The notes beneath the pieces were generated by a model. That model did no database searches, was not told where the DNA came from, and worked only from the letters and a program-made list of their open reading frames with translations. The position numbers and the translations under genes were made by a program. From contig NC_090280.1 of the NCBI RefSeq assembly GCF_037392515.1, positions 62,495,004 to 62,559,003 on the forward strand: DNA of 64,000 nucleotides. The letters are read 5' to 3'. How positions within the stretch are numbered: the stretch's first letter is position 1; every line of letters begins with the position of its first letter. This DNA is from Haliotis asinina (Eukaryota > Mollusca > Gastropoda > Lepetellida > Haliotidae). Below, piece after piece: positions 1 to 64,000 of the stretch.

Positions 1-166
1 CAAAAGTGACAGGGAAGTTTCAACTACATTTCCATGAACGTCTAGAATCTCCACTGAAAAGGGGCTCATGAATATATTCTCACGTAAAATAGTTTGCATA
101 TGCTCCGGCAGGTGGATGACTTTTGACAAGTGGTCAGAGATGAATAAATCCCTAGACTGACTACCC

Positions 167-172
167 AAAAAA
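167..172 (-). terminator. Pol III T6 terminator, reference copy
   Basis: A6 on the plus strand is T6 on the transcribed-sense strand, 31-36 nt past the tRNA 3' end. No T-run of four or more lies between it and the gene, so the primary trailer should be about 30 nt plus a few U. The next T4 runs downstream, at 86-89 and 57-60, would act as back-ups over 110 nt from the gene. Confidence 0.8.
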
Positions 173-185
173 TAGGGTCAGCCGC

Positions 186-202
186 CAGAGTCCTGCACTC
201 TG
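186..202 (-). other. Trailer hairpin touching the tRNA 3' end, reference copy
   Basis: The plus strand reads cagagt, cctgc, actctg: a perfect 6-bp stem with a 5-nt loop. In the transcript it begins at the base right after discriminator A73, where tRNase Z would cut. It is present in the consensus unit. Subfamilies with cacag, ctctctg or ctgtg forms lose one pair each. Confidence 0.7.
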
Positions 203-213
203 TGCCGGAACCC

Positions 214-224
214 GGGATTGAACC
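214..224 (-). promoter_or_regulatory. B box (internal Pol III promoter), reference copy
   Basis: GGTTCAATCCC on the minus strand, tRNA positions 52-62, fits the B-box pattern GTTCRANNC bound by TFIIIC. It is the same in almost every copy; the 13472 copy has an extra base just outside it. Confidence 0.9.
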
Positions 225-256
225 GGGGGCCTTTAGATCTTCAGTCTAACGCTCTC

Positions 257-268
257 CCAACTGAGCTA
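257..268 (-). promoter_or_regulatory. A box (internal Pol III promoter), reference copy
   Basis: TAGCTCAGTTGG on the minus strand, tRNA positions 8-19, fits the eukaryotic A-box pattern TRGCNNARNNG. Four copies (26313, 29737, 34444, 34872) have G10 changed to A inside it, and the 61837 copy has G15 changed to T. Confidence 0.9.
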
Positions 269-275
269 TTCCGGC

Positions 276-630
276 CGACGAGCAAACCTGTCGTTTCAAA
301 CGAACTGTATATAGAGCCAGCCAATTGTCTTGTGTCCAAATGAAGGCTGTGTTTTCATTTGAAATTGCTTTGCAGACCACTGAACGTATATTCTTGTGCT
401 GACCAGTCATTCGTCAGACAGGACAAGTCAAAAGTGACAGGGAAGTTTCAACTACATTTCCATGAACGTCTAGAATCTCCACTGAAAAGCGGCTCATGAA
501 TATATTCTCATGTAAAATAGTTTGCATATGCTCCGGCAGGTGGAGGACTTTTGACAAGTGGTCAGAGATGAATAAATCCCTAGACTGACTACCCAAAAAA
601 TAGGGTCAGCCGCCAGAGTCCTGCACTCTG
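276..630. other. Representative 355-bp spacer
   Basis: Between copies 1 and 2. Besides the promoter and terminator elements it holds short dyads at 292-302 (cgttt-c-aaacg), 353-364 (tttca-tt-tgaaa) and 524-531 (gcatatgc). A minus-strand open frame at 414-596 has no ATG at its start (TTG) and varies mostly at amino-acid-changing sites between units, so I do not call it a gene. I recognise no 5S, snRNA, SINE tail or second tRNA. All other spacers in the array hold the same content unless noted. Confidence 0.8.
308..313 (-). promoter_or_regulatory. TATA-like upstream element, reference copy
   Basis: TATATA lies 33-38 bp upstream of the mature tRNA 5' end (minus strand CTATATACAG). If transcription starts several bases before the mature end, this is about where a TFIIIB/TBP contact falls. 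It recurs at the same place in each unit and reads CATATA on the plus strand in six tRNA-bearing units plus the unit that lost its tRNA. Its promoter role is inferred. Confidence 0.5.
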
Positions 631-703
631 TGCCGGAACCCGGGATTGAACCGGGGGCCTTTAGATCTTCAGTCTAACGCTCTCCCAACTGAGCTATTCC
701 GGC
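631..703 (-). tRNA. tRNA-Phe-GAA: tRNA-Phe(GAA), copy 2
   Basis: Consensus body; L spacer with aaaagcggc. Confidence 0.95.
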
Positions 704-1058
704 CGACGAGCAAACCTGTCGTTTCAAACGAACTGTATATAGAGCCAGCCAATTGTCTTGTGTCCAAATGAAGGCTGTGTTTTCATTTGAAATTGCTTTG
801 CAGACCACTGAACGTATATTCTTGTGCTGACCAGTCATTCGTCAGACAGGACAAGTCAAAAGTGACAGGGAAGTTTCAACTACATTTCCATGAACGTCTA
901 GAATCTCCACTGAAAAGGGGCTCATGAATATATTCTCATGTAAAATAGTTTGCATATGCTCCGGCAGGTGGATGACTTTTGACAAGTGGTCAGAGATGAA
1001 TAAATCCCTAGACTGACTACCCAAAAAATAGGGTCAGCCGCCAGAGTCCTGCACTCTG

Positions 1059-1131
1059 TGCCGGAACCCGGGATTGAACCGGGGGCCTTTAGATCTTCAG
1101 TCTAACGCTCTCCCAACTGAGCTATTCCGGC
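1059..1131 (-). tRNA. tRNA-Phe-GAA: tRNA-Phe(GAA), copy 3
   Basis: Consensus body; I spacer. Confidence 0.95.
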
Positions 1132-1486
1132 CGACGAGCAAACCTGTCGTTTCAAACGAACTGTATATAGAGCCAGCCAATTGTCTTGTGTCCAAATGAA
1201 GGCTGTGTTTTCATTTGAAATTGCTTTGCAGACCACTGAACGTATATTCTTGTGCTGACCAGTCATTCGTCAGACAGGACAAGTCAAAAGTGACAGGGAA
1301 GTTTCAACTACATTTCCATGAACGTCTAGAATCTCCACTGAAAAGGGGCTCATGAATATATTCTCACGTAAAATAGTTTGCATATGCTCCGGCAGGTGGA
1401 TGACTTTTGACAAGTGGTCAGAGATGAATAAATCCCTAGACTGACTACCCAAAAAATAGGGTCAGCCGCCAGAGTCCTGCACTCTG

Positions 1487-61481: not shown

Positions 61482-61800
61482 CGACGAGCAAACCTGTCGT
61501 TTCAAACGAACTGTATATAGAGCCAGCCAATTGTCTTGTGTCCAAATGAAGGCTGTGTTTTCATTTGAAATTGCTTTGCAGACCACTGAACGTATATTCT
61601 TGTGCTGACCAGTCATTCGTCAGACAGGACAAGTCAAAAGTGACAGGGAAGTTTCAACTACATTTCCATGAACGTCTAGAATCTCCACTGAAAAGGGGCT
61701 CATGAATATATTCTCATGTAAAATAGTTTGCATATGCTCCGGCAGGTGGATGACTTTTGACAAGTGGTCAGAGATGAATAAATCCCTAGACTGACTACCC

Positions 61801-61806
61801 AAACAA
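61801..61806 (-). terminator. Interrupted T-run (aaacaa)
   Basis: Longest T-run is three for copy 145. Confidence 0.6.
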
Positions 61807-61836
61807 TAGGGTCAGCCGCCAGAGTCCTGCACTCTG

Positions 61837-61909
61837 TGCCGGAACCCGGGATTGAACCGGGGGCCTTTAGATCTTCAGTCTAACGCTCTCCCAAATGAGC
61901 TATTCCGGC
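61837..61909 (-). tRNA. tRNA-Phe-GAA: tRNA-Phe(GAA), copy 145, G15 to U
   Basis: Private change at the base that normally pairs with C48 (plus strand cccaaatgag), also inside the A box. I spacer; aaacaa terminator; normal ctctgtg trailer. Confidence 0.85.
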
Positions 61910-62567
61910 CGACGAGCAAACCTGTCGTTTCAAACGAACTGTATATAGAGCCAGCCAATTGTCTTGTGTCCAAATGAAGGCTGTGTTTTCATTTGAAATT
62001 GCTTTGCAGACCACTGAACGTATATTCTTGTGCTGACCAGTCATTCGTCAGACAGGACAAGTCAAAAGTGACAGGGAAGTTTCAACTGCATTTCCATGAA
62101 CGTCTAGAATCTCCACTGAAAAAGGGCTCATGAATATATTCTCATGTAAAATTGTTTGCATATGCTCCGGCAGGTGGATGACTTTTGACAAGTGGTCAGA
62201 GATGAATAAATTCCTAGAGCAAACCTGTCGTTTCAAACGAACTGCATATAGAGCCAGCCAATTGTCTTGTGTCCAAATGAAGGCTGTGTTTTCATTTGAA
62301 ATTGCTTTGCAGACCACTGAACGTATATTCTTGTGCTGACCAGTCATTCGTCAGACAGGACAAGTCAAAAGTGACAGGGAAGTTTCAACTACATTTCCAT
62401 GAACGTCTAGAATCTCCACTGAAAAGGGGCTCATGAATATATTCTCATGTAAAATAGTTTGCATATGCTCCGGCAGGTGGATGACTTTTGACAAGTGGTC
62501 AGAGATGAATAAATTCCTAGACTGACTACCCAAAAAATAGGGTCAGCCGCCAGAGTCCTGCACTCTG
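61910..62567. other. Fused spacer: unit that lost its tRNA gene (125-bp deletion)
   Basis: 658 bp without a gene. The text runs from cctagag straight into caaacctg at 62217-62219, so terminator, trailer hairpin, the whole tRNA and a few bases of 5' flank are gone. Intact units have gag at both ends of the missing segment (for example 62948-62950 and 63073-63075), so the join looks like a 3-base microhomology deletion. The orphan upstream element remains as CATATA. The left spacer half carries caactgcat and aaattgttt, matching copy 141. Confidence 0.9.
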
Positions 62568-62640
62568 TGCCGGAACCCGGGATTGAACCGGGGGCCTTTA
62601 GATCTTCAGTCTAACGCTCTCCCAACTGAGCTATTCCGGC
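62568..62640 (-). tRNA. tRNA-Phe-GAA: tRNA-Phe(GAA), copy 146
   Basis: Consensus body; N spacer; CATATA upstream at 62673-62678. Confidence 0.95.
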
Positions 62641-62995
62641 CGACGAGCAAACCTGTCGTTTCAAACGAACTGCATATAGAGCCAGCCAATTGTCTTGTGT
62701 CCAAATGAAGGCTGTGTTTTCATTTGAAATTGCTTTGCAGACCACTGAACGTATATTCTTGTGCTGACCAGTCATTCGTCAGACAGGACAAGTCAAAAGT
62801 GACAGGGAAGTTTCAACTACATTTCCATGAACGTCTAGAATCTCCACTGAAAAGGGGCTCATGAATATATTCTCATGTAAAATAGTTTGCATATGCTCCG
62901 GCAGGTGGATGACTTTTGACAAGTGGTCAGAGATGAATAAATTCCTAGAGTGACTACCCAAAAAATAGGGTCAGCCGCCAGAGTCCTGCACTCTG

Positions 62996-63068
62996 TGCCG
63001 GAACCCGGGATTGAACCGGGGGCCTTTAGATCTTCAGTCTAACGCTCTCCCAACTGAGCTATTCTGGC
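62996..63068 (-). tRNA. tRNA-Phe-GAA: tRNA-Phe(GAA), copy 147, G4 to A
   Basis: Acceptor pair 4-69 becomes A/C (plus strand attctggcc). N spacer with ctagagtg; CATATA upstream. Confidence 0.85.
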
Positions 63069-63423
63069 CGACGAGCAAACCTGTCGTTTCAAACGAACTG
63101 CATATAGAGCCAGCCAATTGTCTTGTGTCCAAATGAAGGCTGTGTTTTCATTTGAAATTGCTTTGCAGACCACTGAACGTATATTCTTGTGCTGACCAGT
63201 CATTCGTCAGACAGGACAAGTCAAAAGTGACAGGGAAGTTTCAACTACATTTCCATGAACGTCTAGAATCTCCACTGAAAAGGGGCTCATGAATATATTC
63301 TCATGTAAAATAGTTTGCATATGCTCCGGCAGGTGGATGACTTTTGACAAGTGGTCAGAGATGAATAAATTCCTAGACTGACTACCCAAAAAATAGGGTC
63401 AGCCGCCAGAGTCCTGCACTCTG

Positions 63424-63496
63424 TGCCGGAACCCGGGATTGAACCGGGGGCCTTTAGATCTTCAGTCTAACGCTCTCCCAACTGAGCTATTCCGGC
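63424..63496 (-). tRNA. tRNA-Phe-GAA: tRNA-Phe(GAA), copy 148
   Basis: Consensus body; N spacer; CATATA upstream. Confidence 0.95.
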
Positions 63497-63851
63497 CGAC
63501 GAGCAAACCTGTCGTTTCAAACGAACTGCATATAGAGCCAGCCAATTGTCTTGTGTCCAAATGAAGGCTGTGTTTTCATTTGAAATTGCTTTGCAGACCA
63601 CTGAACGTATATTCTTGTGCTGACCAGTCATTCGTCAGACAGGATAAGTCAAAAGTGACAGGGAAGTTTCAACTACATTTCCATGAACGTCTAGAATCTC
63701 CACTGAAAAGGGGCTCATGAATATATTCTCATGTAAAATAGTTTGCATATGCTCCGGCAGGTGGATGACTTTTGACAAGTGGTCAGAGATGAATAAATTC
63801 CTAGACTGACTACCCAAAAAATAGGGTCAGCCGCCAGAGTCCTGCACTCTG

Positions 63852-63924
63852 TGCCGGAACACGGGATTGAACCGGGGGCCTTTAGATCTTCAGTCTAACG
63901 CTCTCCCAACTGAGCTATTCCGGC
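63852..63924 (-). tRNA. tRNA-Phe-GAA: tRNA-Phe(GAA), copy 149, G64 to U
   Basis: T-stem 50-64 mismatch; N spacer with private caggataag; CATATA upstream. The window ends 76 bp further on, inside its 5' spacer. Confidence 0.88.
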
Positions 63925-64000
63925 CGACGAGCAAACCTGTCGTTTCAAACGAACTGCATATAGAGCCAGCCAATTGTCTTGTGTCCAAATGAAGGCTGTG

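What the first reader, a model, noticed from the sequence alone, without database searches (positions are those of the whole stretch)
1..64000. At least 149 near-identical tRNA-Phe genes in one pure tandem array
A single isoacceptor repeated head to tail for 64 kb with no other gene is extreme. Animal genomes usually carry far fewer Phe genes, and known tandem tRNA clusters (such as the multi-tRNA repeat of Xenopus laevis) mix several isoacceptors. Even spacing and one orientation suggest the array evolves like rDNA or 5S DNA. Whether it supplies tRNA in bulk or is a tRNA-bearing satellite is open.
Basis: partly seen in the sequence, partly recalled or inferred. Interest (0 to 1): 0.8.

Follow-up and report, generated by a model that had tools for sequence, protein, structure and literature searches.

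The report
Tandem array of phenylalanine tRNA genes
The whole window is one long head-to-tail row of nearly identical phenylalanine tRNA genes in what looks like a eukaryotic genome, a real and striking structure, but of a kind already described in other organisms.

Summary
ARAGORN and Rfam each find 149 tRNA genes in 64 kb, all on the minus strand, one per 428-bp unit. 148 read as Phe(GAA); one copy (13471-13545) has a mutated anticodon plus a 1-bp insertion and is called Leu(TAA). One 303-bp unit (62087-62389) has lost its gene. 126 of 149 genes are identical over 73 nt. The consensus unit is a complete Pol III gene: A box, B box, TATATA at -38, T6 terminator. Both window edges lie inside the array, so its length is unknown. 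Neighbouring units share variants and one block is repeated at an 8-unit shift, marks of unequal exchange. Gene and spacer vary alike (7/73 versus 44/355 sites, p = 0.69), so selection on single copies is not seen. Such arrays have precedent: P. infestans has 271 tRNA-Cys genes in one array of 513-nt units, and Hydractinia, an animal, has tRNAs for all 20 amino acids in tandem arrays, though that paper calls the arrangement unusual. Supply versus satellite stays open; the host genome is not held.

The parts
1..64000 (-). Tandem array of 428-bp units: 148 full units, one 303-bp unit and partial units at both window edges; gene strand is minus
203..275 (-). Reference tRNA-Phe(GAA) gene, 73 nt, consensus sequence; A box at 8, B box at 53, no encoded CCA
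308..313 (-). TATATA element at -38 to -33 of the reference gene; the -45 to -30 stretch is consensus in 142 of 148 full units, and 5 of the other 6 have the TATA itself changed
   Evidence: position read from sequence; counts
167..172 (-). T6 Pol III terminator at +104 to +109 of the reference gene; in the stretch 74 to 130, a run of 5 or more T is kept in 135 of 148 full units, 4 or more in 138 of 148
   Evidence: position read from sequence; counts
186..202 (-). 17-nt hairpin (6-bp stem, 5-nt loop) directly after the tRNA 3' end
   Evidence: fold of the consensus; placement from sequence
13471..13545 (-). Copy called tRNA-Leu(TAA): a Phe copy with G34T and a 1-bp insertion
62087..62389 (-). 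303-bp truncated unit lacking the whole tRNA gene (125 bp gone, -6 to +119; 2-bp microhomology at the junction)
25800..33006 (.). Block repeated at an 8-unit (3424-bp) shift: exact repeat of 3783 bp, the two copies overlapping
   Evidence: variant lists

Best explanation
A large, homogenised tandem array of nuclear tRNA-Phe(GAA) genes in a eukaryote, probably an animal. The 428-bp unit is a self-contained RNA polymerase III gene: TATA element, internal A and B boxes, gene, short hairpin trailer and T-run terminator. Copy number and sequence are kept uniform by unequal crossing-over or gene conversion between neighbouring units, as in 5S rDNA. Shown: anatomy, copy count, orientation, local sharing of variants. 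Inferred: that most intact copies can be transcribed. More weakly inferred, by analogy with zebrafish, where genes of egg and early-embryo tRNAs lie in repetitive regions: that the array serves a phase of high demand such as oogenesis, with many copies silent otherwise. I give this last step about 0.4, no more than the silent-satellite rival; the confidence below is for the array and how it evolves.
For: 149 tRNA genes in one orientation; 428-bp period; 126 of 149 genes identical over 73 nt (126 of 148 full units); A box, B box, TATA and T6 in the consensus; neighbouring units more alike than in 300 shuffled orders, z = -5.3 at lag 1, -7.9 at lag 5, -5.9 at lag 8; 3783-bp exact repeat at an 8-unit shift; local variant groups, e.g. 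72C>A and 76G>C only between 44110 and 49674. Comparable arrays in print: P. infestans, Hydractinia, Arabidopsis. Zebrafish early tRNAs from repetitive regions.
Against: No expression data. Gene and spacer vary alike (7/73 versus 44/355 sites, Fisher p = 0.69; variant frequencies p = 0.70), so selection on individual copies is not seen. 22 of 148 full units have a changed gene, 7 of them at position 72, where the first acceptor pair is broken, and 1 in the anticodon. 13 of 148 have a substitution inside the T6 run and 1 more has lost one T; 10 of 148 keep no run of 4 T in the stretch 74 to 130. That is as expected if copies are dispensable. Host genome not held, so Phe genes elsewhere could not be counted.
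Confidence: 0.85

Rival explanations
1. A tRNA-bearing satellite: the same array, grown by neutral unequal exchange, with copies largely silent and cytosolic Phe tRNA coming from genes elsewhere.
For: Same density of variable sites in gene and spacer; 22 of 148 full units carry a changed gene. In print: the Arabidopsis Ser/Tyr cluster is silenced in most tissues (abstract) and the chromosome 5 Cys cluster is apparently silenced but not completely (passages).
Against: Consensus gene and its Pol III signals are intact, and 128 of 149 copies score the full 71.9 bits. Polymorphism inside a homogenised array says little about long-term constraint, and with only 7 variable sites in the gene the test has low power.
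Confidence: 0.4
2. An assembly artefact: a short array inflated by the assembler.
For: Near-identical units; an exact 3783-bp repeat; no reads available.
Against: 57 distinct haplotypes among 148 full units (insertions not counted), with many variants confined to part of the array. At the offsets scanned (near multiples of the unit, up to about 52 kb) the next longest exact repeat is 1796 bp; an inflating assembler should leave longer exact copies.
Confidence: 0.05
3. A chromatin or replication element: the Pol III/TFIIIC sites act as a boundary or fork barrier and tRNA output is incidental.
For: A boundary role is proposed for the human 1q23.3 tRNA repeat, whose 7.3-kb unit binds CTCF (title and start of abstract in the listing); [quoted passage not shown]
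Against: Nothing in this window tests it; the human unit is very different.
Confidence: 0.1

Closest known systems
Phytophthora infestans monomeric tRNA arrays (e.g. tRNA-Cys GCA, chromosome 6; PMC9584435)
   Same: All 271 tRNA-Cys(GCA) copies in one tandem array of 513-nt units; in single-chromosome monomeric arrays repeats are nearly identical and variants occur in groups (passages)
   Different: Oomycete; different isoacceptor and unit length; many isoacceptors amplified there
Hydractinia RNA gene tandem arrays (PMC11067881)
   Same: Animal; [quoted passage not shown]
   Different: Composition of each tRNA array is in supplements that were not read, so size and purity of its Phe array are unknown to me; identity with this window not tested
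Arabidopsis tRNA-Cys cluster (PMC10701932) and Ser/Tyr cluster (PMC12308677)
   Same: Cys: about 420-bp units with one tRNA gene; Ser/Tyr: 27 tandem units over almost 40 kb with no other annotated gene (passages; abstract and outline)
   Different: 4 to 6 units for Cys; three genes per unit for Ser/Tyr; plant
Entamoeba tRNA gene arrays (PMC2652664)
   Same: Long tandem arrays, units of 1 to 5 tRNA genes, mostly uniform within an isolate of E. histolytica (passages)
   Different: Complex short tandem repeats between genes in E. histolytica; TRF reports none inside this unit
Zebrafish repetitive tRNA clusters (PMC11417395)
   Same: Large repetitive tRNA clusters in an animal; they hold the genes of egg and early-embryo isodecoders (passages)
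   Different: Adjacent pairs in zebrafish are mostly of different isoacceptors

Membership tests
Homogeneous tandem tRNA gene array (one isoacceptor) | Adjacent tRNA genes of the same isoacceptor within 1000 nt (definition from PMC2888827) | tested here: met
   148 of 149 Phe(GAA), steps of 427-429 bp with one of 731 bp; the one Leu(TAA) call is a mutated Phe copy
Homogeneous tandem tRNA gene array (one isoacceptor) | Near-identical units including the spacer, head to tail | tested here: met
   mean 2.99 differences per 428 bp between 148 full units; all genes on the minus strand
Homogeneous tandem tRNA gene array (one isoacceptor) | Concerted evolution: variants shared among neighbours | tested here: met
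   lag analysis against 300 shuffles; variant groups
Functional nuclear tRNA-Phe gene | Cloverleaf, GAA anticodon, A and B boxes, terminator | tested here: met
   met for the consensus; exceptions: 23 of 149 genes differ from it and 14 of 148 full units have a changed T6
Functional nuclear tRNA-Phe gene | Transcribed, processed and charged | not testable with these tools
   no RNA or ChIP data
Functional nuclear tRNA-Phe gene | Purifying selection on gene relative to spacer | tested here: inconclusive
   7/73 versus 44/355 variable sites, p = 0.69, low power
Entamoeba histolytica-type array | Complex short tandem repeats between genes | tested here: not met
   TRF reports only the 428- and 303-bp periods

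The most novel reading that the evidence does not exclude
In this species Phe alone is amplified to an array of well over 149 copies, and the array is an oocyte-type Phe tRNA locus, a counterpart of oocyte 5S rDNA, that sets a stage-specific Phe tRNA pool.
Probability: 0.12. Interest if true: 0.6.

Novelty: new member of a known kind. Interest (0 to 1): 0.3.

Why it matters
It adds a well-resolved single-isoacceptor array to those described, with enough internal variants to follow unequal exchange unit by unit. If Phe alone were amplified in this species, the question of what such arrays are for would become directly testable.

Tried and rejected
Host genome: not held, so Phe genes elsewhere and other isoacceptors could not be counted. 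The unit elsewhere: a 20-base 5' flank pattern in viral contigs gave 0, a 42-base gene pattern in genome contigs 0, a 40-base gene pattern in viral contigs 0, all exact-match scans; one whole unit against phages gave no match; against plasmids it gave 5 records, each 57-58 bases inside the tRNA at 82.5-84.5% in Arthrobacter, Paenarthrobacter and Mycobacterium, i.e. ordinary tRNA similarity.

Protein-coding content: 3 ORFs of 75 aa or more in the window had no Pfam match at E 0.1, nor had 4 of the 12 ORFs of 40 aa or more listed for 1-1300. 428 is not a multiple of 3. Repeats inside one unit: two 10-nt direct pairs and three imperfect inverted pairs, chance-like.

Selection: promoter plus gene (-45 to 73: 11/118 versus 40/310 variable sites, p = 0.40) was negative. 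A split into the part up to the gene's end and the part after it gave 20/250 versus 31/178, p = 0.004, but the split was chosen after seeing the sites. A rise of variation towards the high-coordinate end was not significant (Spearman 0.13, p = 0.11) (all).

The first unit alignment was spoilt by doubled units and was replaced; two rows of 856 bp were split into single units. The two edge fragments (327 and 24 bp) and the 303-bp unit were left out of the counts of 148. A 1-bp insertion in a unit is not counted in the haplotypes. The lag test looked at lags 1 to 59; 14 had z below -2 (1-6, 8, 9, 12, 16, 18, 23, 28, 38), and lag 7 did not.

Full report
Observation. ARAGORN lists 149 tRNA genes in the window, all on the minus strand, 148 of them Phe(GAA) and one Leu(TAA). 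Rfam's tRNA model gives 149 matches at threshold, 128 at the top score of 71.9 bits and the lowest at 62.7, and no other family. TRF gives a period of 428 bp with 99% matches. The single Leu call is a Phe copy with G34T and one inserted base. One unit of 303 bp (62087-62389) lacks the gene; the deletion runs from -6 to +119 and the junction shows a 2-bp microhomology. The window begins and ends inside units, so 149 is a lower bound for the array.

Unit anatomy (gene strand). The 73-nt gene matches TRGCNNARYNGG (A box) at 8 and GWTCRANNC (B box) at 53; these consensus strings are recalled, the match is. TATATA lies at -38 (read); the stretch -45 to -30 is consensus in 142 of 148 full units, and 5 of the other 6 have a changed TATA. 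A T6 run lies at +104; in the stretch 74 to 130, 135 of 148 units keep a run of 5 or more T, 138 keep 4 or more, and 10 keep neither. A 6-bp hairpin follows the gene, and the gene folds as a cloverleaf at -26.5 kcal/mol. CCA is not encoded. That it looks like a metazoan nuclear tRNA-Phe is recalled, not tested; the species is not identified.

Variation. Among 148 full units there are 57 haplotypes (insertions not counted), the commonest 33 times; two units differ on average at 2.99 of 428 sites. 126 of 149 genes are identical to the consensus. The other 23 carry 72C>A (7), 64G>T (7), 10G>A (4), 46G>A (2), and 4G>A, 15G>T and 34G>T (with the insertion) once each. One search lists these for the 148 full units, with 64G>T six times; the seventh is the gene in the edge unit, counted and seen at the same score as the other six. 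Variable sites are 7 of 73 in the gene and 44 of 355 in the spacer (p = 0.69), and variant frequencies do not differ (p = 0.70). So these data give no sign that single copies are under selection; the test is weak, and it does not speak to the array as a whole.

How it evolves. Neighbouring units are more alike than in 300 shuffled orders at lags 1 to 6 and 8, and more weakly at seven further lags of the 59 tested. The longest exact repeat, at offsets near multiples of the unit up to about 52 kb, is 3783 bp at a shift of exactly 8 units, from 33006 downwards; the next is 1796 bp. Some variants are confined to part of the array, for instance 126G>A to 51.4-63.7 kb and 72C>A to 44.1-49.7 kb, while others such as 159A>C (42 units) spread over nearly all of it. 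This is what unequal crossing-over and gene conversion would leave behind, and it speaks against an inflating assembler. That reading is inference; no reads were available.

Precedent. PMC2888827 (section on clusters read) reports clusters of fifty and more tRNA genes in Nematostella and teleosts, and mostly same-isoacceptor pairs in drosophilids, Monosiga and Tetrahymena. In P. infestans (PMC9584435) all 271 tRNA-Cys(GCA) genes form one array of 513-nt units, and tRNA gene numbers were confirmed by Illumina read depth (passages). [quoted passage not shown] they also say that tandem tRNA arrays are unusual outside Entamoeba, with one mammalian example, and that among other cnidarians they found such RNA arrays only in Nematostella (passages). 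Arabidopsis has a Cys cluster with about 420-bp units (PMC10701932, passages) and a Ser/Tyr cluster, silenced in most tissues but active in root tip cells (PMC12308677, abstract and outline). Entamoeba arrays: PMC2652664, passages. Eight searches listed no paper whose title or abstract start I recognised as describing this Phe array. They cover open-licence PMC papers only, and four listings were shorter than the hits (20 of 111, 7 of 8, 15 of 21, 12 of 33). Supplements were not read, since the session allows no look-ups in them.

Function. [quoted passage not shown] By analogy an array like this could serve oogenesis or another phase of high demand. I take that as the working reading, at about the same odds as a silent satellite; nothing in the window decides it.

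Verdict. A real, well-resolved structure and a new member of a known kind.

Noticed in passing
62087-62389: Truncated 303-bp unit that lost its tRNA gene, with a 2-bp microhomology at the junction.
   Followed up: yes
13471-13545: Copy with anticodon TAA through G34T plus a 1-bp insertion, read by ARAGORN as Leu; if expressed it could misread Leu codons, but it is one of 149.
   Followed up: partly
25800-33006: Block of units repeated at an 8-unit shift, 3783 bp exact.
   Followed up: yes
43861-49497: Seven copies with 72C>A, which breaks the first acceptor pair, in one stretch: a damaged gene variant that has spread locally.
   Followed up: partly
whole array, unit positions 74 to 251 versus -177 to 73: The part of the unit after the gene is more variable than the part with 5' flank and gene (31/178 versus 20/250 sites); split chosen after the fact.
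   Followed up: partly
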